Source: Saitoella complicata NRRL Y-17804 (lineage: Eukaryota; Ascomycota; Saitoellomycetes; Saitoellales; Saitoellaceae). Taken from it: a stretch of 64,000 nt of DNA. Of the stretch, positions 17,888 to 33,262 are shown one piece after another. The stretch's first letter is position 1. Each line of letters opens with the position of its first letter. The DNA is taken from NCBI RefSeq assembly GCF_001661265.1, contig NW_017567002.1:310001-374000 (forward strand). The letters are read 5' to 3'. A model generated the notes under the pieces. It made no database searches, was not told the origin of the DNA, and was given only the letters and a program-made list of their open reading frames with translations. Position numbers and translations under genes: made by a program.

Positions 17888-19499
17888 GTTGCACATGCTT
17901 TCGTGAACGGATTGCTCGATTGCTGTTCTGTTCTTGTTTTTGGTGCAAGGTCTGCGGGTTCAGACGGAGTCAACATCATCATCTATTACGGCTTTGGAGT
18001 TGTGTTTTTTTTTTTTGCATACTATATTCATGGCTTCGATCAACTGGGCTATAATATTTTTAAGGTAGGAGCTGCTTATAGCTGTTTACGACGTGATATG
18101 AATGGAGTTCTCGTCATTCAGGTTCACAAGGTTCATTTTAGATATGTGTAGAAGTAACAAGATTGTATTGAATAATATAATAACCCATTGAAACAGAAGA
18201 GCACTCAGCATACGAAGTTTTCTCAACAACCGCAGGGGTCCGAAGACCAATGCTTGTCAGGATTTTCAGTGTGTGTATTTACCATCATTGCGCTCTTCCT
18301 TTCCGTCTCCCAGAACGATACGACTGATTACAACGTCAAACATATCGCACAAGAAGAGAGAGAGGATGAATCAAGGCCTTGCACCCCCGAGAATAGTCGG
18401 AATTGAGTTATCACATCCGAGGATGAGACGCCGTACATTGCACTGAAGTTGCTTCTCAGCAAACAACCCCCGCGACAGCCTCCCAAGATCCGTCATCCTT
18501 TGCAGGAGGGACCGTGTCTTTCTGTTACTGTCACAAGCCTGTTAAGGCCAGGCCCTTCGAGAGCTAACACGACTGAGTCGAGTTGTATGAGGGAGATTCT
18601 CCGACCTTAGCCCCCTCGCGTGAAAAGAGAGGATATCAACCCAAGGGCCTCTATCCTTTCCGTGTGTGTAGCGAGGAAGTACGGCATTCGACGGTGCAAG
18701 GACTTGACTGGGTGTTGCGTTTGCGGAGGAGCAGCCAAAATATATAGCCCAGGGCGAGGGACGGCCGCCGTGGGAACTCCCGCAATTCACTCGCAGAAAA
18801 GCCTGAACCGGTCTCCAGAATAATTCACTTTGATGAGCTGGACATGCCGCGATATGTCTCCAGTTATCGAGGAGGATCAATGTCCTGCGAAAATTGTTCA
18901 TGAACACGTGCATACTCAGGGCTGCGGGTATAAGACCGAGGAACCCCGCGCGTACTGCGAAACCTTACAACTATACGTTCCAACGATGAGCAGGTTTACT
19001 CCGTTTAGGCGACCGGTCTAATCAATCGTGTCGACTCGTCGCTCCTGCTGGTTTCGCAAGAGGCCAAAGGGAGTGATGGGCGCTGTGGATATCGCCCTGC
19101 CTCCACCACCATTACAAGGGGCGTTGTAAGCAATCTGAGGTTCTTCCGTCTTGTCGCACTGGTTGTCTGGTTGCGGCAGAGGAGTAGTTGTATTGTGTTA
19201 GTGACGACGAGCAAGTGTTTGTTCGTCGTTTTATCATTTGCTGGCCTTGGGGATGAGTTAGCATCCGAATGGAACATGGCAAATCTGCCAGCGTGATAGA
19301 TAGCCGTACCGACAATAAACCCGTTGATCCGTACCCGCTTCCAACCACCTTTATTCATACTCCCATTTCTCTTGGCCCTGTACGCGTCGGTCTCGGCATC
19401 CCCCATGTTGCACCGATGCTCCGCCACGCACGTCCTCGCGCTATATGACGCTGGTAATCTCGAAGGTTCAACGAGACATACAGACAAACATACACCACC
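17888..19499. other. 1.6-kb gene-free stretch upstream of fimbrin
   Basis: Contains the 3' region of the MIT gene, a run of 12 T at 18005-18016, AT-rich sequence to about 18190, and a TATA-like AATATATAG near 18738. Short frames on both strands have no recognisable product and overlap each other. I regard it as 3' UTR plus fimbrin promoter, with no gene or RNA that I can support. Confidence 0.4.
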
Positions 19500-21686: not shown

Positions 21687-23130
21687 ATGCTCGCGTTCAA
21701 GTCTTCAGTCCGACCGGCTGGATCATCGGTTTGTACTCCTTCCATGTTGTAGCCTTAGGACTTCTCGCTGATCTATCTCAGTTCCGTCGAGTGATCACAG
21801 CAGTACGGAGGCTTCACATTCATGAACACCAAGCAAACGATCTTTTGAGACACCATGCGATTAGAATTCCTGCAGGCGGGATTGCCCGCACGCCGGCGGA
21901 GGCTCGCGCCGTTGCGGAACAGCTTGAGAAGAGTGGGAAGACGGCGTATATGGTAAAGGCACAGGTGTTGGCCAATCAGAGGCAGACGGGGACATTCGAG
22001 AATGGTGTAAAGGGTGGAGTCAGGGCAGCAAGCAGGTATGCTATACGCTCAGTCTGTTGATCCGGAACGAACTCATCATGATTGCAGTGCCGAGGATGTT
22101 GAGCGTGCCGCCCGGGACATGCTCGGACACCGTCTCACTACGCCAGCACCCACCACCAACCCAGCTGGACTCCCCACAGCATCCGTGCTTGTGACAGAGA
22201 AGCTCGATGGCCGTCAGCTTTACCTCGCCATCACATGTGATCGCAAAACCTGCGCACCCATCGTCGTCTGCTCCCGCCGCGGCGGCATTGAACTGGAGAA
22301 CCTCGACCCAGAAAGCATCCATCGCATTCAAATCAAATACTCCAAAGGAATCACCGACTACGTCGCTGCTAGCGTCGCCAGTGCCCTTGGTTTGGGTATC
22401 GACCAAATGAAGAACACCCTCGAAAAACTCTGGACAATCTTCAAAGAGAAGGAGGCACTCATGTTGGAGATCAACCCTTTGATCGAGACAACTGAGGGCA
22501 AGGTGGTTTGTGCTAGTCCGAAGTTTTCATTCGACAATGCTGCGAGGAGTAGACAGCCTGAGTTATTTGGGGCCGCGTCTAAACACGACGGGTCGACTGG
22601 ATTGAGGGATGTTTCGCAGGAGGTTGCGGAGGAGGTGAAAGCGGAGGAGGCTGATCTGGTATACATCAAGATGTTTGAGGGGAATGTTGGTACGCTCGGT
22701 AGGACTTCCTCCCTCCTAGTTGACAAACCATCTAACGGTGATACCAGTTAACGGAGCCGGCTTGGCAATGTCGACCCTCGATACCATCGCTCACTATGGT
22801 GGAGCTTCGGCCAACTTCTTAGATGCCGGAGGTCGAGCAACCTCAGAAACCATCAAACAGGCTCTGACGCTTATCCTCTCCGACAAGAGAGTCAAATCAG
22901 TCCTCGTTAACATCTATGGTGGTCTCACACGAGGAGACATGATTGCTAACGGTATCATCCTGGCTGCGAAGAGTCTTGATATCCACGTACCCGTAGTGGT
23001 CCGGATTCAGGGAACGAATTCTAAGGAGGGACAGCAAATTATCAGGGAAAGCGGATTGGGATTGATCAGTTGTGACGGGATGGAGGAGGCAGCGAGGAAA
23101 GCGATCGAGTTGGCGAATGCTGAGGCCTAG
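21687..23130 (+). CDS. Succinyl-CoA ligase beta subunit-like protein (LSC2 family, divergent)
   Basis: Exons 21687-21728, 21782-22035, 22088-22698 and 22748-23130, total 429 aa. The first exon and start of the second give a basic mitochondrial presequence (MLAFKSSVRPAGSSFRRVIT), then RRLHIHEHQANDLL aligns with the start of mature beta subunits. ATP-grasp and C-terminal CoA-ligase parts are complete: LEINPL, NGAGLAM, NFLDAGG, VNIYGG and VVVRIQGTN are all visible. The family joins a dicarboxylate to CoA at the cost of ATP or GTP as an alpha-beta pair. It is unusual that the glycine-rich AGGRGK loop of normal beta subunits reads ANQRQTG, and that the second Mg-binding Asp after EINPL is replaced (CASPK). 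The alpha partner lies 2.7 kb downstream. An ordinary TCA-cycle role is therefore doubtful; ligase activity on another acid is inference. Confidence 0.85.
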
Positions 23131-23376
23131 CAGAAGCAGCTGACATATACCGTTTGTTACCATTGAGTGAGATTCACTTATTTCAAGTGCATAAAATGCA
23201 AAGGCTGAACTGTGCGTGAGGAATCCGGACTGAAGTCACCCGTTCCCGCGCGTACATCTGTCCGGCAGCAACCCCGCGTACGCCCTCTCCGCACTCCCCG
23301 CTCGTATAGGTACACCCTGACGTCGTCATGTAAATAAACTCTGTTGGCCTTGAATCCTTCAGCAACCGCTTCAGCA

Positions 23377-24180
23377 ATGGACGTACCAGGCTTCGCACTT
23401 GTCACCGGCGCCGGATCAGGGATCGGCCTGGCATGTGCCATGGTTTACGCAAGAGAAGGTTCCGCAGGTGTCTGCTTGGCTGACATCAGCCCCGAAGCTC
23501 TACAGAAGGCATCCGAGCAGGTACAATCTGTCGCTACCAACCCCGAATTCAAAGCAATCTCTGTGGTGGTCGATGTCAGAAGCGAAGAATCCGTCAACAA
23601 GATGGTCAGCGAAACCATCAAAGCATTCGGAAGATTAGACTACGCTGCCAACTGCGCCGGCGTCTCCTTCAAGCCTGGTCATGGCCACGAAGGCGGTTGG
23701 TCGATGACAAACTATGATTTCGTTACCGATATCAACTTTCGCGGGGTCTTTCTCAGCACGAAAGCCGAAATCGCGGCCATGAAAACACAGGAGCCTCGGG
23801 ACAACCCGCGTCGACCTGACAAGAAACAACGAGGGTCCATTGTGAACATTGCGTCTATGTCTGGCTTAGTGGGATTGAAGAACTCTGCGGCGTACGCGGC
23901 GTCAAAACATGCTGTTGTGGGGTTATCGAAGAACGCAGCAATTGATCATGCCGAGGATCTCATCCGCTGCAACGCGGTATGCCCGGGGTATATCTATACA
24001 GCGCTGACTCAGAATGACACGATCAGGGCAAAGGCGGAGAAGTTGAGTGCGGATAAGCCTATGGGAAGGCTGGGCGAGCCGGAGGAGATCGGGGATGCTG
24101 TTGTCTTTTTGAGTGGAGGCAGGGCTAGTTTTGTTACTGGAACTGCATTTTCCGTGGATGGCGGATATACCGCTGTTTAG
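23377..24180 (+). CDS. Short-chain dehydrogenase/reductase (first of two)
   Basis: Single exon, 267 aa from the ATG at 23377 (MDVPGFALVTGAGSGIGLAC). Classical SDR features: nucleotide-binding TGAGSGIG near residues 10-17, acidic residue after the second strand (LADIS), NCAG, catalytic Ser (SMSG) and YAASK, and the C-terminal GTAFSVDGG. The enzyme should oxidise or reduce a hydroxy/keto group with NAD(P)(H); the acidic residue suggests NAD preference. No targeting sequence is evident. It lies between the beta subunit of the ligase and the acyl-CoA dehydrogenase, and its 3' end is only 86 bp from the convergent dehydrogenase gene. A role as a 3-hydroxyacyl-CoA dehydrogenase in that cluster is inference from context. 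Confidence 0.85.
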   Translation: MDVPGFALVTGAGSGIGLACAMVYAREGSAGVCLADISPEALQKASEQVQSVATNPEFKAISVVVDVRSEESVNKMVSETIKAFGRLDYAANCAGVSFKPGHGHEGGWSMTNYDFVTDINFRGVFLSTKAEIAAMKTQEPRDNPRRPDKKQRGSIVNIASMSGLVGLKNSAAYAASKHAVVGLSKNAAIDHAEDLIRCNAVCPGYIYTALTQNDTIRAKAEKLSADKPMGRLGEPEEIGDAVVFLSGGRASFVTGTAFSVDGGYTAV

Positions 24181-24266
24181 TGATTGGATATATCGAACAT
24201 ACCTACTATTCCACATGACGTGCAGCCCCCCCTTTGGGAATACTGGGTAACCAACGTGAGAACCTC

Positions 24267-25620
24267 TCAATAACTCCTCGGCAACCCCAATACCCTCTCC
24301 CCCAAGAAATTCAAGATCATCTCCCTACTGACCGGCGCAATCCTCGGCACAAAACTCTCCCTCAAGTACCTCTCCACATGAAACTCCTGCGCATACCCCA
24401 TCCCACCATGCACCATTACCGCCCTTTCACACGCCTTGAACCCCGCTTCCGCCGCGAGGTATTTAGCAGTATTAGCAGCAACACCGACCGCGACGGCTGG
24501 AGCACCTGAGTCGTAGAGTCGTGCGGCGTGGTAGGTTGTGTGTGTTGCTGCGAGGAGCTGGGCGTAGGAGTCCGCGAGTGCGTGTTGAATGGATTGGTTT
24601 TGGCCGATGGGACGGCCGAAAACAACGCGTTCTTTTGCGTAGCGAGCGGCACGTTTGAGGGCCGCGTAGCCCAATCCTAGTGCTTCTCCGGCGAGGAGAC
24701 AGCGTTCTGCGTTCATTCCATGTAGGATCTGCTTGAATCCGTCGCCTTCTTTACCGATGAGCGAGGAGGCTGGGATAGGGTAGTCCTCGAGGAAGATCTC
24801 GTTTGCGTCGACTGCCCTACCGCCCATTTTCGGGATCTTGGACATGGTTAGCCCGGGGTGGGAGCGGTCTAGGGGAATGTAGAACATCGATAGGCCGGAG
24901 GATGGTTTGGTCACTTGTTCGATGGGGGTTGTTCGAGCAAGGAGGATCATGTTTTGGCATTGTTGGGCGTTGGTGATCCATCTGTAGAAATGTCAGCTTG
25001 TGATCCGAAGGGGTTGTTTAGAAGTACTACATCTTGCTTCCGGTGACGAGGTATGAGCCGTCACTTCGTTTTTCAGCCTTCGTCCGCAGACGTAGTGTAT
25101 CGAGTCCACTCTCCGGCTCGGTCACACCGAAACACGCTCTTTCCTTGCCACTGATGAGCTTTGGTAGGAACTCTCCCCTCTGCTCCTCCGTAGCGAACTT
25201 CGCAACCGGCATCGTCGCATAGATATTCGCATGGACAGTCTGAGCCCCCGCAATCCCCGCTCCGCTCTCCGCAATAGTCTGCAACATCACCGTAGCCTCA
25301 CTAATTCCTAACCCAGCACCTCCCAAATCATCCGGCAACGCAATTCCGATCCATCCGTCTTTGGCGAGCGCAGCGTGCAGGTCACCGGGGTATTTCCCGG
25401 TTGCGTCCGCTTCGGCCCAGTATGTATCTGGGAATTGGGAGCAGATTTTCTCGATAGACTCGCGGACCATGACTTGGGATTCGGAGAGGATGGAGGTATC
25501 CATGCCTGCGAACTCGATTCCGGCGGAGGTGGATTGCGAGCGGATCCCGACATTGGCGGATCTGATCCGCCAGCCAATTACTCTCGCCAGATCCGTCAAT
25601 GGCCTTCGTACAACGTTCAT
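24267..25620 (-). CDS. Acyl-CoA dehydrogenase, mitochondrial type
   Basis: Two exons on the minus strand, 25620-25031 and 24981-24267, 434 aa. The junction restores the family motif GSKIWITNA. The N-terminus (MNVVRRPLTDLARVIGWRIR) is basic and Arg-rich, consistent with import into mitochondria. Core ACAD elements are present: FGVTEPESGLD, MNAERCLLAGEALG, KERVVFGRPIGQNQSIQHALAD, and VHGGMGYAQEFHVERYLRE, whose Glu sits where the catalytic base lies in short-chain family members. The enzyme should introduce a 2,3-double bond into an acyl-CoA, passing electrons to ETF. It is divergent from the ligase alpha gene over about 223 bp, so the two may be co-regulated. The chain-length or branched substrate cannot be read from sequence. 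Confidence 0.9.
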
Positions 25621-25843
25621 TCTTGTCGATATACCGGTGTTGATTCTTCCTTCAATGGCCCTTGGTGTAGCACTCCCGAGGTCGCTTCCCTACAGTCGAC
25701 CTGTCGCCAAATGATGCCGCTTGCCGACACCGCAAGCGCGACGTTGATCCGCGGAATGTGGGGAACGCCGGGTTGTCCCGCGAAGAGGAGAAAGATCCAA
25801 TACTTGAAGGACAGAACCGAAGCTGTATCAATTGACAAAAACG
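25621..25843. promoter_or_regulatory. Bidirectional promoter between acyl-CoA dehydrogenase and ligase alpha genes
   Basis: 223 bp separate the two divergent ATGs. The stretch contains GC-rich palindromic pieces (CCGCGG near 25750) but no clear TATA. A shared control region for the two genes is inferred from spacing. Confidence 0.45.
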
Positions 25844-26887
25844 ATGTTGTCGACGATGAGATCAAATACTACCAGGGCGGTACAGCGTCGTCTCTTCTCC
25901 TCCTCCACCTCTCAAAGATATCGGGATGGATCTTACCAAGACACAATCAAGAACCTCAAAATCGACGAAAACACCCGTATAGTCTACCAGGGGTTCACCG
26001 GAAAACAAGCAACAGTCAATGCACAGCAAACAATCGATTATGGTACGAAGGTAGTAGGCGGCGTCTCTCCTAACAAGGGTGGATCAGGCGCAACTCATCT
26101 TGGTCTACCCGTCTTTAAGACCATTGAGGAAGCAGCACGGGAACTCAAACCACATGCTACAGCAGTTTTTGTCCCAGCGCTTTCTGCAGCCGGTGCGATT
26201 GAGGCTGCGATTGAAGCGGAGATCCCGTTGATCGTATCCGTGGCCGAACATGTCCCTATCCATGACATGCTCCGCATCAACCAGATCCTCCGCGCACAAT
26301 CTGCATCACGTCTCGTTGGACCAAACTGTCCTGGTATCATCGCTGCCGAAGCCTGTCGTATCGGGATCATGCCACACCTGACCTTCCGCAAGGGCTGTGT
26401 GGGTATCGTCTCGAAATCTGGAACGTTATCCTACGAAGCGGTGGGGTCAACATCCAACGTTGGATTGGGGCAATCGATCACAATAGGAATGGGAGGTGAT
26501 CCCATGCCTGGTACAGATTTCGTCGATGCGCTGAAGATGTTCCTCAAAGATCCCCAGACCAAAGGCATTATCGTCATCGGCGAAATCGGCGGAGAAGCGG
26601 AGTTCGAGGCAGCAGCCTTCCTTGAGGAAAACAACATCGGACCGAACAAGAAGCCCGTCGTGGGTCTTGTTGCGGGGTTGACGGCGCCGTTTGGGAGGGC
26701 TATGGGACATGCGGGGGCCGTGAGGTTGCCTTGGGAGAGGAGTGCGGATGAGAAGAGGAAGGCGCTTGAGAGGGCGGGTGCGAGAATTGTTGTGCATCCT
26801 GGGGAGACTGGACAGACTATGATTGAGTTATTCAAAGAAGCAGGGATTGACTGGACGCCCGTGCCCGAGCGTGAGTATTCTAGCTAG
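25844..26887 (+). CDS. Succinyl-CoA ligase alpha subunit-like protein (LSC1 family, divergent)
   Basis: Single exon, 347 aa from ATG 25844. A presequence rich in Arg and Ser (MLSTMRSNTTRAVQRRLFSS) suggests mitochondrial import. Mature alpha-subunit landmarks follow: YQGFTGKQAT for CoA binding, GGVSPNKGG, VGPNCPGI, SKSGTLSYEAV, GIGGDP-like GMGGDPMPGTDF, and the phospho-His loop GHAGA. Two departures stand out: the usual IMPGHIH segment reads IMPHLTF, and the glycine-rich IISGGKG or IIAGGKG that follows GHAGA is replaced by VRLPWERS. The protein should work with the beta-like product of 21687-23130 as an acid-CoA ligase; the departures suggest a specialised substrate. An identity as the ordinary TCA Lsc1 is the alternative. 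Confidence 0.85.
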   Translation: MLSTMRSNTTRAVQRRLFSSSTSQRYRDGSYQDTIKNLKIDENTRIVYQGFTGKQATVNAQQTIDYGTKVVGGVSPNKGGSGATHLGLPVFKTIEEAARELKPHATAVFVPALSAAGAIEAAIEAEIPLIVSVAEHVPIHDMLRINQILRAQSASRLVGPNCPGIIAAEACRIGIMPHLTFRKGCVGIVSKSGTLSYEAVGSTSNVGLGQSITIGMGGDPMPGTDFVDALKMFLKDPQTKGIIVIGEIGGEAEFEAAAFLEENNIGPNKKPVVGLVAGLTAPFGRAMGHAGAVRLPWERSADEKRKALERAGARIVVHPGETGQTMIELFKEAGIDWTPVPEREYSS

Positions 26888-27195
26888 TCTTATCGAAGAT
26901 TGGAAGCTTCTCGCAGTATACCAAAAGCGAGCTCGTGTGACCTTCTTCGAACTTTAAAAATCGCTATCTCTTGCTTTTGCCAGGCCGAGGGTGCGGGCCG
27001 AAATTCCCAGCAGGCAGGTGCCAACAGCGCGCCAATGACGCTGGGCCCTTCCCCACATGTGAAATTCCATAGACCCTACCGTATCCTGGAGTACCCCGCA
27101 CGCAATTGCGCAATGACCTGAGATATGTTGATCGCTTGGAATTGCCGTACATAAAGGTCCCTTGATCCGCCCTCCTCCAACTCCAGAGATCAACC
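26888..27195. promoter_or_regulatory. Promoter region of the MaoC/HTD2-like gene
   Basis: 308 bp between the ligase alpha gene and the dehydratase gene, same strand. GC-rich in its centre; a weak TATA-like ACATAAAGG at about 27150 lies some 45 bp before the ATG. No gene is seen. Confidence 0.35.
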
Positions 27196-28401
27196 ATGAA
27201 GGCACTGATCAGACCGTTTACACGCTCGATACCCTCAGCAGTACCGCGCACTGTGATCCGCGGCCAATTCCAGCAGATCAGACATGAATCGACTGGCTGG
27301 ATCAGTACGGAACAGGTCGCAGCGCAATTCAACGAACACCACGTAGGGAAGTCGTACACCCGAACTCAATACCTCGACGCGAACCAGATCGCGCTGCTCT
27401 CGTGTACTCTCAACCGCTCTGATCCATCTACCCTTGATCCACAGCAAGGAACTCCAGTTCCGCCAGGATGGCATCTGGTTTATTTCACACCGCGTATCAT
27501 GACGTCTGACCTCGCCCCAGACGGCAGCGACGCAACCTTCAACCCGGGCAAGCCCTTCACCCGCCGCATGTGGGCTGGCGGCGAGATGATCTTTGAGCGA
27601 GACAATGAGTTGGCGATTGGTGATACAGTCACTGAGACCACCGTACTCGAGTCCTGTGATATCAAGCATGGAGCGAAGGGCGGGGAGATGTTGGTTGTAG
27701 GTGTGAAGAAGACGTTTGAGAATGAGAGAGGGTTGGCGGTAACGGATAAGAGAAATTGGGTGTTTCTGAAAGCTGCGAAGGCTGCTGCGGCTGAGGGAGG
27801 GAAAGGGAAAGGAGAGCAGAAGGTGGTGGATGATGAGGCGCGGAGGGAGGCCGGGAAGAAGGTAGCGAGCGACAGTAAGTTGCAGAGCGCTTCCAGCAAT
27901 GGTGATCCACTGCACTTGCCTTTTCTCTCCAAGTCAAGGTCTAACGTGTGTTTAATAGATACAACCCCACTGTCAACGCGTTCGGTAACACAAGACCCAG
28001 CGACCCTCTTCCGCTACTCAGCCCTTACCTTCAACGGCCACAAAATCCACTACAACACCCCCTGGACCCAAACCCAAGAACTCCACCCCGATATCGTCGT
28101 CCATGGACCCCTAAACTTGACCCTCCTTCTCGATTTTTGGCGCGACACGCACGCAAAGCGAATCGAAAACTTATCACTTCGAGCGTTGCGGAGTGCGGAG
28201 TACGATGTGAAGGAGGAAGAGGATAAGGCTGAGCCGAGGATCCAGAGGGTGAAGTATCGTGCTATGACTCCGGTCTATGCCGGGGAGAGGTATGAGTTGA
28301 AGATGAGGGATGTTGAGGGGGAGGGGAATACGAGTGAGTTGTGGGTGGAGAAGGAGAATGGGGCTGTTGGAATGAAGGCGTCCGTTGAGTCCTGGGCTTG
28401 A
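27196..28401 (+). CDS. MaoC/HTD2-type hydroxyacyl-thioester dehydratase (mesaconyl- or itaconyl-CoA hydratase-like)
   Basis: Two exons, 27196-27874 and 27959-28401, 373 aa. The 84-nt intron is in frame and stop-free, but its GTAAGT donor, CTAAC branch and TTTAATAG acceptor are convincing. The start (MKALIRPFTRSIPSAVPRTV) looks like a mitochondrial presequence. A double hot-dog layout is likely: the first half holds GWHLVYFTPR and RRMWAGGEMIF, the second half the active-site segment FRYSALTFNGHKIHYN with the conserved His, and VVHGPLN. These are hallmarks shared by Htd2 of mitochondrial fatty-acid synthesis and by mesaconyl-C4-CoA or itaconyl-CoA hydratases. Its place after the CoA-ligase and dehydrogenase genes favours a hydration step in a catabolic route; mtFAS Htd2 is the alternative. 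Confidence 0.8.
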   Translation: MKALIRPFTRSIPSAVPRTVIRGQFQQIRHESTGWISTEQVAAQFNEHHVGKSYTRTQYLDANQIALLSCTLNRSDPSTLDPQQGTPVPPGWHLVYFTPRIMTSDLAPDGSDATFNPGKPFTRRMWAGGEMIFERDNELAIGDTVTETTVLESCDIKHGAKGGEMLVVGVKKTFENERGLAVTDKRNWVFLKAAKAAAAEGGKGKGEQKVVDDEARREAGKKVASDSKLQSASSNGDPLHLPFLSKSRSNVCLIDTTPLSTRSVTQDPATLFRYSALTFNGHKIHYNTPWTQTQELHPDIVVHGPLNLTLLLDFWRDTHAKRIENLSLRALRSAEYDVKEEEDKAEPRIQRVKYRAMTPVYAGERYELKMRDVEGEGNTSELWVEKENGAVGMKASVESWA

Positions 28402-28725
28402 CGTGTATGATATAGCGATCTGCTGTACGGACACTGTTATCTATGTCAGCGTATTCTTACTCGTATACAATAAAATAGCATTGAAACCGTGAGAATTATG
28501 TCTCTCCTATGATTGTGCGCGGGCCGGCCAGCTGCATTGACTGGTGGGAAAGCGCGTGACTTCCGACACTGGCAATTGCGGGGTCTGATCAGGACTCGTT
28601 CAATTTACCGCCAGCAACGGATGCAATGATTCGAGGTGGGGGCGATGTCTTTCGTATAAAGGGAACGGCAACGTCTCCGCGGACGGTTGTAGCAGAACGG
28701 GCTCGCATCAAACAACTCAAGATCA
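28402..28725. promoter_or_regulatory. Promoter of the second SDR gene
   Basis: 324 bp. A clear TATAAA at 28655-28660 lies 66 bp before the ATG, and a GCGGGG element, a possible CreA-type site, is at 28578-28583. No other feature is seen. Confidence 0.45.
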
Positions 28726-29732
28726 ATGATTATGGCGCCTCATGCTGACGAAGCTGAATTTCTTCCCGTAACTGATGAGAGCACACAATCACTCCGTGGA
28801 GGAGGAGAGGGAAACAGATTGGCCGGAAAAGTGGCAGTGGTGACGGGTGCAGGCAGTGGATTCGGAGAAGGTGTGTGCTCAAAGCTCTCCGCTCTCACTC
28901 GTCGTCTAACGGAATTTAATAGCGATTGCGAAGAAGTATGCTTTTGAAGGAGCAGCTGTCGTCTGTGTCGACATGAACGAGAAAGCGGCTGCACGTGTCG
29001 CTGGGGAGATCGGAGGGGAAAAGTGTATCTCGTTTAAGGCGGACGTGAGCAACTTCAAAGATTGGGAAGCTTTGATCAAGAAATGCAAAGAAGAACTCGG
29101 TGGGATTGATATTCTTGTCAATAACGCTGGGACGTCTCATAAGAACAAGGTACGATATCGGAGAATCAAGGACGTGCATGAGCTCGTGCTAAGGTCAACT
29201 ATCGTACAGCCAACTCTGGAGGTGACAGAAGACGAGTTCGACCGCGTTTTCGCCGTAAATGTCAAATCCATCTTTCACTCGGTCCACGCCGTGATGCCCC
29301 TCCTCATTGAACAAAACCGCGGCGGAAGCATCATCAACACCTCCTCCATCGGCGCTCACCGTCCTCGTCCCGGACTCAGCTGGTACAACGCCAGTAAAAG
29401 TGCCGTAACCAATGTCACCAAATCACTTGCAGCAGAGTATGGACCCAAGGGTATCCGTGTGAACGCTATTTTGCCTCTTATGGCTGCTACAGGTCTTATT
29501 GAAACGTTTATGGGGATGGAGAACACGGAGGAGAACCGGGCTAAGTTCGTGGGAAACGTGCCGATGGGGAGGTTGTGTACTCCGGAAGATGTTGCCAAAG
29601 CAGCGCTTTTCCTTGCAAGCGACGACTCGTCTTTCATTACGTAAGTAAATTCCGGTCAACATTGAGTACTGTAGCTGACTTGGTAATGACAGTGGACAAC
29701 AGCTTGAGGTTGATGGAGGGCGCGGGATCTGA
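28726..29732 (+). CDS. Short-chain dehydrogenase/reductase (second; 3-hydroxyacyl or 3-oxoacyl type)
   Basis: Four exons, 28726-28870, 28923-29149, 29210-29640 and 29693-29732, 280 aa. The first junction rebuilds the cofactor loop TGAGSGFGEAIAKKYA; the 60-nt second intron is in frame and stop-free but interrupts conserved sequence; the last exon adds the family C-terminus TGQQLEVDGGRGI. NNAG, catalytic Ser (NTSSIG) and YNASK are present, and VDMN after the second strand suggests NAD preference. The protein resembles FabG-type reductases and hydroxyacyl dehydrogenases. With the preceding dehydratase it could complete a hydration-oxidation pair, which is inference from order. A 35-residue polar N-terminal extension precedes the Rossmann core. 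Confidence 0.85.
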
Positions 29733-31921: not shown

Positions 31922-33262
31922 ATGAAGACCGTTTTCACCCTCTTTACTTGCCTCGCCAGTCTCACCTCTGTCATATCCACGTCCTACCCGTGACTTGGAC
32001 TCGACTACACCTCGCCTGTCTTGCTCCCTGGTTATTTTCTTACCAAGCTTGCTGACGGTTTCAAGCACGCTCGTGACATTGTCATCGACAGCTGCGGTAA
32101 CCTCATCTTCGCCTCGCTCGGGGACGGTATAATTGCCTTGAAGCCTGAGTGGAATGATGTCTGTCCCACCATCGTCGAGACCAAGGTGCTCGTTCCCGAT
32201 GACGGCTTGAACTTCACCTCCGCCATCACATTGTCTCCCGATGGCAAAACCATCTTCGCCACGACTCCCCAACTTGCCTTGGGTTGAGAGTACGATATTG
32301 ACAGCTTGCTCTGTCACATCTGAAGCCAAGGTTGTGGTTACGGGAATGGCACCTGGGCCGGTCGCTGAGGCAATTAGTCGCGCCGTTGCTATTCCTCAGG
32401 ATAACCCCGATGTTCTGTTTATCAACCGTGGTCTCGATACTCCCGACATTGACAACGCAACCGCGTTCATCGACAATAGCAAGGGTATGATCCAGGCATT
32501 CGACCTCACCAATATGCCTGCCGATGGATACGACTACACCACCGACGGCACAGTTTTCTCTTGGGGTCTCCGCGACACCGTGGGATTCCCGAGGACGCTA
32601 GTGGTAACTTCTGGGTTACCGACAACGGAGCCGATGGCATTACCCGCAACGGTGTTCCCTTGACCGACAACCCCGGCGACGAATTCAACTGCTTGGGCAA
32701 GTACGACGCGTTCTCTACCTCCCCCCCTCCTAACCCCGGGTACCCATTCTGTCACACCAGCTGGAACGTCTCGTCATTGCCAGACTCCGCAGACCTCAGT
32801 ATCGGCACCGGGTTGTTGCTTGACGCCTCCGTTCACGTTGACTCATTCTGCGCCGAGAACAGTATCCCGCCTCGTATCTCCTTCCTTACACACACAGCAC
32901 CCCTCGGCATCGCATTCTACAAGCCCGAAACTCCCTCCTCCGGCAAAGACCTCGTCGGCTCCGCCTTCGTCTCACTCCCCGGCCCAGCAGGCCATAGCAT
33001 CGTCGTTGTCCCCTTCAAAGACGGAGAACCCGCCGCTCCTGCTGACTCGGGAAAGGGGTACTACGACTTTGTCTGGACATCGCCGAGCGTGAATAAGTCG
33101 CAGTGTAGGTCTGCGTTACTTCAGGCTCCTGCGGGGATTGGTTGTCTGAGTCCGGTGGGGTTGGTATTTGATAAAAGGGGACGGCTGTACTTCACTGCGG
33201 ATGTTACTGGTGAGGTCTTTGTTGTGACGAAGGACCAGCCTGAGGATTGTAGCGGGGACTGA
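31922..33262 (+). pseudogene. Broken secreted glucose/sorbosone dehydrogenase-like beta-propeller gene
   Basis: Conceptual pieces match the fungal secreted sorbosone-dehydrogenase-like family: a signal peptide (MKTVFTLFTCLASLTSVIST), GDGIIALKPEW, LSPDGKTIF, SWGLRDTVG, NFWVTDNGADGI, HTAPLGIAFY and the C-terminal SPVGLVFDKRGRLYFTADV. Functional relatives oxidise sugars outside the cell using a six-bladed propeller. Here the frame carries in-frame TGA codons at 31991 and 32285 and changes of reading frame near 32310 and 32580; no plausible intron removes them. The part from 32561 to 33262 is still open for over 230 codons. The promoter TATA box is retained, so inactivation may be fairly recent. 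Assembly error is the alternative explanation. Confidence 0.7.

What the first reader, a model, noticed from the sequence alone, without database searches (positions are those of the whole stretch)
21687..29732. Six-gene acyl-CoA cluster built around a succinyl-CoA ligase-like alpha/beta pair
Seen: a ligase beta-like subunit, SDR, acyl-CoA dehydrogenase, ligase alpha-like subunit, MaoC/HTD2-type dehydratase and a second SDR lie in 8 kb. At least four have mitochondrial presequence-like starts. Known: in the fungi I know, LSC1 and LSC2 for the TCA cycle are not organised as part of such a cluster. Inference: the products could activate an acid to its CoA ester, dehydrogenate, hydrate and oxidise it, i.e. 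a beta-oxidation-like route without a thiolase in view. Candidate substrates are C5-C6 dicarboxylates (adipate-like, methylsuccinate) or itaconate, where a MaoC-type itaconyl-CoA hydratase is known. This could be an undescribed catabolic system.
Basis: partly seen in the sequence, partly recalled or inferred. Interest (0 to 1): 0.75.

Follow-up and report, generated by a model that had tools for sequence, protein, structure and literature searches.

The report
Yeast acyl-CoA cluster, probably for dicarboxylates
Six neighbouring genes of the yeast Saitoella complicata probably form a mitochondrial route that attaches coenzyme A to a small dicarboxylic acid with a diverged copy of a citric-acid-cycle enzyme and then breaks the acid down; similar copies of this enzyme occur in many moulds and their task is not known to us.

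Summary
Six intact genes fill window 21687-29732 of the Saitoella complicata genome: ligase beta, SDR, acyl-CoA dehydrogenase (ACAD), ligase alpha, MaoC/FAS1-type hydratase, second SDR. Four have presequence-like starts. Twenty long frames scanned elsewhere in the window gave no further acyl-CoA gene.

The ligase pair is a diverged duplicate. The genome holds another alpha and two other betas. The cluster alpha groups with 18 mould proteins against four LSC1-type proteins (100/100), with fixed loop changes and the GHAGA motif kept. The beta is 36-41% identical to the other betas.

The hydratase is nearest, among solved structures, to itaconyl-CoA hydratase. The ACAD is 54-57% identical to bacterial ACADs that are often near CoA-transferases, sometimes near MaoC and lyase genes, seldom near a thiolase.

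Best reading: a mitochondrial module for a short, perhaps branched C5, dicarboxylate (methylsuccinate/itaconate type) in which a succinyl-CoA-ligase paralogue replaces the CoA-transferase. Substrate and unity of the route are inferred. A lyase homologue lies 82 kb away. Linkage is mostly not conserved: alpha and hydratase share a contig in 2 of 5 comparable species; hydratase and ACAD in 1 of 11. A new variant of a known kind, moderately interesting.

The parts
21687..23130 (+). Succinyl-CoA-ligase beta-like subunit, 429 aa; exons 21687-21728, 21782-22035, 22088-22698, 22748-23130; presequence-like start
   Evidence: Gene model; Pfam ATP-grasp_2 and Ligase_CoA; PRK00696 374.5 bits against cut-off 370, TIGR01016 340.5 below 375.55; 36-41% to the genome's other betas, which are 52% to each other over 230 aa
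23377..24180 (+). SDR1, short-chain dehydrogenase/reductase, 267 aa, single exon, no presequence seen
   Evidence: adh_short_C2; best solved relative 5x8h, 167 bits; role not determined
24267..25620 (-). Acyl-CoA dehydrogenase, 434 aa; exons 25620-25031 and 24981-24267; presequence-like start
   Evidence: Pfam; identical to P0241, G7K_0609; 54-57% to four bacterial ACADs of L031-L034, 40-41% to the ACADs of L035/L036; Glu289 invariant in 7 of 7, N.ER motif in 120 of 120 listed relatives
25621..25843 (.). 223-bp divergent intergenic region between ACAD and alpha
   Evidence: Coordinates; no k-mer shared above chance among the five upstream regions
25844..26887 (+). Succinyl-CoA-ligase alpha-like subunit, 347 aa, single exon, presequence-like start
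   Evidence: CoA_binding and Ligase_CoA; PRK05678 344.5 bits over 336, TIGR01019 335.6 below 353.2; grouped with 18 mould proteins apart from four LSC1-type proteins, 100/100
27196..28401 (+). MaoC/FAS1-type hydratase, 373 aa; exons 27196-27874, 27959-28401; presequence-like start
   Evidence: FAS1_DH_region; best solved relatives 8huc and 8khg (itaconyl-CoA hydratase), E 3.2e-26 and 6.3e-26; trees and motifs
28726..29732 (+). SDR2, short-chain dehydrogenase/reductase, 280 aa; exons 28726-28870, 28923-29149, 29210-29640, 29693-29732; no presequence seen
   Evidence: adh_short_C2; best solved relative TsaC 8sy8, 253 bits; role not determined

Best explanation
A mitochondrial catabolic module for a short dicarboxylic acid, most likely a branched C5 acid of the methylsuccinate/itaconate type. 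Proposed steps: (1) the alpha/beta ligase, a diverged succinyl-CoA ligase, activates the acid to its CoA ester with ATP or GTP through the phosphohistidine mechanism of its fold; (2) the ACAD dehydrogenates the saturated ester (methylsuccinyl-CoA to mesaconyl-CoA; skipped for itaconate); (3) the MaoC protein hydrates the enoyl-CoA to a hydroxyacyl-CoA such as citramalyl-CoA; (4) a citramalyl-CoA-lyase-like protein encoded 82 kb away on the same contig, or else an SDR, finishes the route. Shown: gene content, gene models, duplication and divergence of both ligase subunits, kept GHAGA motif in alpha, sequence relations of ACAD and hydratase. Inferred: substrate, order of steps, that the genes serve one route, which enzyme ends it, location in mitochondria.
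For: Own genome: alpha at C14 and betas at C2 and C4 besides the cluster pair. In a tree of 23 rows the cluster alpha and 18 mould proteins are split from 4 LSC1-type rows by a 100/100 branch; 19 of 19 family rows have N59, H136, K191, S196 where the 4 others have H, G, R, T. In the 120 listed relatives [AT]EH[IV] and [SA]KSGTLSYEA occur in 104 each, GHAGA in 119, an LSC1-type motif in 11. Two yeast LSC1-type proteins score 412-423 bits on both NCBIfam alpha models, three mould family proteins 348-358, the cluster alpha 336-345. Hydratase: nearest solved proteins 8huc and 8khg; best plasmid relative, 31.8%, lies in L036, ordered MaoC-ACAD-CoA transferase-lyase-transporter-MmgE like the published itaconate/methylsuccinate cluster (PMC12290011 section 4). 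It keeps RRMWAGG and FRYSALTFNGHKIHY, which the HTD2-like gene on C3 lacks. Bacterial ACAD relatives: of 80 loci, 54 are longer than 14 kb; there type III CoA-transferase in 38, CitE-like lyase in 12, short MaoC in 11, thiolase in 6; lyase, MaoC and CoA-transferase together in 8. Homologues of the missing parts exist in the genome: lyase-like C11:421763-422686, 29-35% over 156-164 aa to four bacterial lyases, and CoA-transferase C4:563993-565165, 34% to that of L036. PMC12290011 (section 6) states that succinyl-CoA synthetase can activate itaconate and that some bacterial clusters lack the CoA-transferase gene.
Against: No lyase or MmgE/PrpD isomerase in the cluster. The ACAD is nearer to another bacterial group (54-57%) than to the ACAD of the itaconate-type locus L036 (40%), and that group's substrate is unknown. 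No bacterial relative locus carries a SucC/SucD-like match (0 of 80). In other fungi ACAD and hydratase lie on different contigs in 10 of 11 species, ACAD and alpha in 3 of 3. The hydratase is only 30-31% identical to three bacterial ones. A CoA-transferase homologue exists elsewhere in the genome, so the ligase need not be the activator. No shared upstream motif. Two SDRs are not needed by this route. The cluster alpha is as close to the genome's own C14 alpha (57%) as to its most distant family rows, and in 5 of the 16 diagnostic columns it departs from the family majority, three times to the LSC1-type letter.
Confidence: 0.42

Rival explanations
1. Beta-oxidation of a straight-chain dicarboxylate (glutarate to adipate range): ligase, ACAD and MaoC hydratase act as above, an SDR oxidises the 3-hydroxyacyl-CoA, and a thiolase encoded elsewhere cleaves it.
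For: Two SDRs sit in the cluster and their wider relatives include 3-hydroxybutyrate dehydrogenases and 3-oxoacyl reductases; the gene set fits a beta-oxidation turn up to the thiolase.
Against: No thiolase among the proteins and frames scanned in the window; thiolase in 6 of 54 bacterial neighbourhoods of the ACAD relatives against 12 with a CitE-like lyase; the hydratase's nearest solved relative is an itaconyl-CoA hydratase; no presequence is seen in the SDRs.
Confidence: 0.2
2. Only part of the neighbourhood is one pathway: the ligase pair, perhaps with the hydratase, is the unit, while the ACAD and the SDRs are neighbours with other tasks.
For: Alpha and hydratase share a contig in Lophiotrema nucula and Massarina eburnea (2 of 5 comparable species), alpha and ACAD in 0 of 3, hydratase and ACAD in 1 of 11; close ACAD relatives are listed from many Pezizomycotina; no common upstream motif.
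Against: Six adjacent genes of one metabolic type are very unlikely by chance (rough estimate); the ACAD shares a 223-bp divergent upstream region with alpha.
Confidence: 0.23
3. The pair is a back-up or condition-specific succinate-CoA ligase of the citric-acid cycle.
For: Each subunit passes one NCBIfam succinate-CoA ligase model (PRK05678 344.5 over 336; PRK00696 374.5 over 370); alpha keeps GHAGA; the second models' cut-offs are weak evidence, since one of three mould family proteins passes TIGR01019 and the genome's C4 beta, given as an incomplete frame, also misses TIGR01016.
Against: Alpha lies apart from four LSC1-type rows with fixed changes in conserved loops; beta is more diverged from both other betas than these are from each other; neighbours are acyl-CoA enzymes.
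Confidence: 0.08
4. The hydratase is the HTD2 of mitochondrial fatty-acid synthesis and its place beside a ligase pair is accidental.
Against: A second HTD2-like gene exists at C3:244787-245449; the cluster gene keeps the motifs of the bacterial itaconyl-CoA-hydratase-type proteins, the C3 gene does not; the tree puts yeast and C3 on one side (93/80), with a long-branch warning.
Confidence: 0.07

Closest known systems
Itaconate/methylsuccinate degradation cluster of Pseudomonas and Cupriavidus (ict, ich, ccl, mcd, msi)
   Same: An activating enzyme, an ACAD and a MaoC/FAS1-type hydratase encoded together; the hydratase's best plasmid relative lies in such a locus, L036 (PMC12290011)
   Different: Ligase pair in place of the CoA-transferase; no lyase or isomerase in the cluster; the ACAD is nearer to another bacterial group; two extra SDRs; eukaryotic host with presequence-like starts
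Fungal itaconate degradation of Aspergillus terreus and A. niger (IctA, IchA, CclA)
   Same: A hydratase, predicted mitochondrial in A. niger; lyase- and transferase-like genes are present in this genome
   Different: In A. niger the genes are not clustered and a CoA-transferase is the activator (PMC6320622, passages); orthology of the hydratase with IchA was not tested, the Aspergillus reference sequences being not at hand
Succinate-CoA ligase LSC1/LSC2
   Same: Same domains; GHAGA motif; PRK05678 and PRK00696 cut-offs passed
   Different: Separate group with fixed loop changes; another alpha and two other betas exist in the genome
Bacterial ACADs near type III CoA-transferases (for example Paracoccus L031, Roseomonas L032)
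   Same: 54-57% identity, similar C-terminus, Glu289 kept
   Different: CoA-transferase instead of a ligase; substrate unknown

Membership tests
Canonical succinate-CoA ligase (LSC1/LSC2) | Domain architecture, and GHAGA motif in alpha | tested here: met
Canonical succinate-CoA ligase (LSC1/LSC2) | Both NCBIfam models of each subunit over cut-off | tested here: inconclusive
   PRK05678 and PRK00696 passed; TIGR01019 335.6 against 353.2 and TIGR01016 340.5 against 375.55 missed. Controls: 2 of 2 yeast LSC1-type alphas pass both, 1 of 3 mould family alphas passes both; an incomplete frame of the C4 beta also misses TIGR01016
Canonical succinate-CoA ligase (LSC1/LSC2) | Alpha groups with LSC1 | tested here: not met
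   Separated by a 100/100 branch; only 4 LSC1-type rows in the tree, none from Pezizomycotina
Canonical succinate-CoA ligase (LSC1/LSC2) | Activity on succinate | not testable with these tools
   Needs an enzyme assay
Malate-CoA ligase | NCBIfam beta model PRK14046 over cut-off | tested here: not met
   311.8 bits against 604
Itaconate/methylsuccinate cluster, Pseudomonas type | Itaconyl-CoA hydratase homologue | tested here: met
   8khg E 6.3e-26; 31% to the hydratase of L036; homology only, orthology not shown
Itaconate/methylsuccinate cluster, Pseudomonas type | CoA-transferase in the cluster | tested here: not met
   A ligase pair instead; PF02515 matches on C4, C30 and 47 kb away on C11
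Itaconate/methylsuccinate cluster, Pseudomonas type | Citramalyl-CoA lyase in the cluster | tested here: not met
   Homologue 82 kb away on the same contig
Itaconate/methylsuccinate cluster, Pseudomonas type | ACAD orthologous to methylsuccinyl-C4-CoA dehydrogenase | tested here: inconclusive
   40% to the ACAD of L036, 54-57% to another group; no tree made, substrate not tested
Itaconate/methylsuccinate cluster, Pseudomonas type | MmgE/PrpD isomerase in the cluster | tested here: not met
   The one match found in the genome is on contig C13
Mitochondrial HTD2 | Orthology with yeast Htd2 | tested here: inconclusive
Fungal IchA | Orthology with A. terreus/A. niger IchA | not tested
   Sequences not available here

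The most novel reading that the evidence does not exclude
Fungi possess an undescribed family of phosphohistidine-type acid-CoA ligases, derived from succinyl-CoA ligase by duplication and a changed active site, that serves a route for branched C5 dicarboxylates such as methylsuccinate; it occurs widely in Pezizomycotina and is gathered into one cluster in Saitoella.
Probability: 0.28. Interest if true: 0.65.

Novelty: new variant of a known kind. Interest (0 to 1): 0.5.

Why it matters
Close relatives of the alpha subunit are listed from many moulds as 'succinate-CoA ligase'. If those moulds also have an ordinary LSC1, as Saitoella has a second alpha (not tested for them here), a wrong function may be written into many fungal metabolic models. 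If the pair makes CoA esters of itaconate or methylsuccinate, it names a eukaryotic activator for these acids besides the CoA-transferase, bears on itaconate production in fungi, and gives a testable route for methylsuccinate. The Saitoella cluster supplies the guilt-by-association hint that most of the compared fungi lack.

Tried and rejected
Citric-acid-cycle ligase pair: not favoured because another alpha and two other betas exist and the cluster alpha lies apart from LSC1-type rows. 3-Sulfinopropionyl-CoA desulfinase (an ACAD relative that works with SucCD, recalled): considered because the model appears (186.5 bits against 600), not favoured since Glu289, by recall the base position of isovaleryl-CoA dehydrogenase, is kept in 7 of 7 aligned rows. 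Malate-CoA ligase: far below cut-off. Shared upstream motif: none above chance. PF03328 match on C21: the locus encodes a pyruvate-kinase-like protein (identified by reading, not by a search). Nicotinate catabolic cluster: the one passage seen says hxnT, hxnN and hxnM are unlinked in S. complicata (PMC8478523). NCBIfam cut-offs as a test of the pair: weakened by the controls.

Papers: abstract and sections 4, 6, 12 and part 1 of 2 of section 14 of PMC12290011; passages of PMC6320622, PMC6862759, PMC8478523, PMC11817166, PMC9875883 and PMC11494057; only the listing of PMC4447899. In the listings I saw no paper that describes this pair or cluster; the library is partial and only titles and abstract starts were seen there.

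Not done: no tree for beta (the three protein searches went to alpha, hydratase and ACAD), none for ACAD or SDRs, no structure prediction, no control set for the neighbour counts, no Pezizomycotina LSC1 in the alpha tree, no expression data.


Full report
Where it is. The alpha and ACAD of the window match proteins G7K_0610 and G7K_0609 of Saitoella complicata NRRL Y-17804; the window is C11:310001-374000 of a 14.1 Mb assembly. P0001, the deposited alpha, has a different N-terminus from the frame read here: from the ATG at 25844 the frame gives a presequence-like start.

What is there. Six gene models with GT-AG introns give open frames. Spacers between neighbours are 86 to 324 bases; ACAD and alpha diverge from a 223-bp region. 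Of 20 long frames scanned elsewhere in the window none is an acyl-CoA enzyme.

The ligase. The genome has six places with Ligase_CoA (seven matches): an alpha on C14, betas on C2 and C4, an ATP-citrate-lyase-like gene on C1, and the cluster pair; those outside the cluster were named by reading the frames. The cluster alpha is 57% identical to the C14 alpha (275 aa) and 57-64% to 18 Pezizomycotina relatives (taxonomic placement recalled); in a tree of 23 rows, 19 family rows and 4 LSC1-type rows are split by a 100/100 branch. Sixteen columns are diagnostic, among them TEGIP to AEHIP/AEHVP and SRSGTLTYEA to SKSGTLSYEA; the cluster alpha itself departs from the family majority in 5 of the 16. These loops lie, by recall, near the phosphohistidine and CoA site; that was not tested here. 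The changed motifs occur in 104 of 120 listed relatives each and GHAGA in 119 of 120; 11 of 120 carry an LSC1-type motif. The rows in the tree were taken from the best hits of the cluster alpha, and no Pezizomycotina LSC1 is among them, so it is not shown here that these moulds have both kinds; Saitoella does. As controls, two yeast LSC1-type alphas score 412-423 bits on the two NCBIfam models, three mould family alphas 348-358, the cluster alpha 336-345. The beta is 36% (365 aa) and 41% (252 aa) identical to the C4 and C2 betas, which are 52% identical to each other over 230 aa. Both subunits therefore diverged; that they did so for a new substrate is inference.

The hydratase. Nearest solved proteins are 8huc and 8khg, the latter named itaconyl-CoA hydratase. 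Its best plasmid relative lies in a Comamonadaceae locus ordered MaoC, ACAD, CoA-transferase, lyase, transporter protein, MmgE/PrpD, the gene set of the published itaconate/methylsuccinate cluster (PMC12290011). The genome's second HTD2-like gene on C3 is 23-24% identical and lacks the shared motifs. In the tree the cluster gene groups with Pezizomycotina proteins, with bacterial hydratases as the next group and the C3 gene outside, but the C3 branch is very long. Whether this fungal family is IchA, HTD2 or both is not settled.

The ACAD. It is 54-57% identical to ACADs of Paracoccus, Roseomonas, Polaromonas and Frigidibacter and 40-41% to those of L035 and L036. Of 80 bacterial loci returned (the best 80 of 585), 54 are longer than 14 kb; there a type III CoA-transferase is found in 38, a tripartite-transporter-type protein in 17, a CitE-like lyase in 12, a short MaoC in 11, a Cat1-like transferase in 11, an enoyl-CoA hydratase in 11, thiolase in 6, SucC/SucD-like genes in none, and lyase plus MaoC plus CoA-transferase in 8; 13 of 54 have neither lyase, MaoC nor type III CoA-transferase. 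No control set of other ACADs was examined, so these are descriptions, not enrichments. The pattern points to an acid activated by CoA transfer and sometimes cleaved by a lyase.

Linkage in other fungi. Comparing contig lengths in the listings, alpha and hydratase share a contig in Lophiotrema nucula and Massarina eburnea, not in Colletotrichum cereale, Pleurostoma richardsiae or Purpureocillium takamizusanense; alpha and ACAD in 0 of 3; hydratase and ACAD only in Periconia digitata (a 5-Mb contig) of 11. Equal length is taken as the same contig; positions on it are unknown. Under an assumed 40-Mb genome a shared contig by chance would be about 3% and 1% for the two positive alpha-hydratase cases. 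The full cluster is thus known only from Saitoella on present evidence. Saitoella coloradoensis has the hydratase at 92% identity; its gene order was not seen.

Missing enzymes. A lyase-like gene lies at C11:421763-422686, 82 kb from the cluster and beside an aldehyde-dehydrogenase-like frame; the contig is 3% of the genome, so sharing it is weak evidence. CoA-transferase-like genes lie on C4, C30 and, 47 kb from the cluster, C11. One MmgE/PrpD match lies on C13.

Verdict. Observation confirmed. That the ligase pair is a diverged duplicate with a task other than the ordinary one I hold at about 0.8; that ligase, ACAD and hydratase act together on a branched C5 dicarboxylate is my best single reading (0.42). 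It resembles bacterial itaconate/methylsuccinate clusters but does not meet their definition. Interest 0.5.

Noticed in passing
window 18381-18697, minus strand: Nuclear RNase P RNA gene (RF00009, 98.3 bits).
   Followed up: no
G000:C4:374791-375964 and C2:267161-268273: Two further succinyl-CoA-ligase beta genes, 52% identical over 230 aa, beside one separate alpha; perhaps ATP- and GTP-type forms.
   Followed up: partly
window 25844-25930: The deposited alpha protein (P0001) has another N-terminus than the presequence-like one read here; the database gene model may be wrong.
   Followed up: partly
G000:C11:421763-424600 (L042): A CitE/citramalyl-CoA-lyase-like gene lies next to an aldehyde-dehydrogenase-like reading frame.
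   Followed up: partly
L082, L106, L126: Three MAG records titled Bordetella parapertussis carry these ACAD loci; the species labels look doubtful.
   Followed up: no
window 32480-33259: TrAA12-like domain (97 bits), apparently part of a gene with introns.
   Followed up: no
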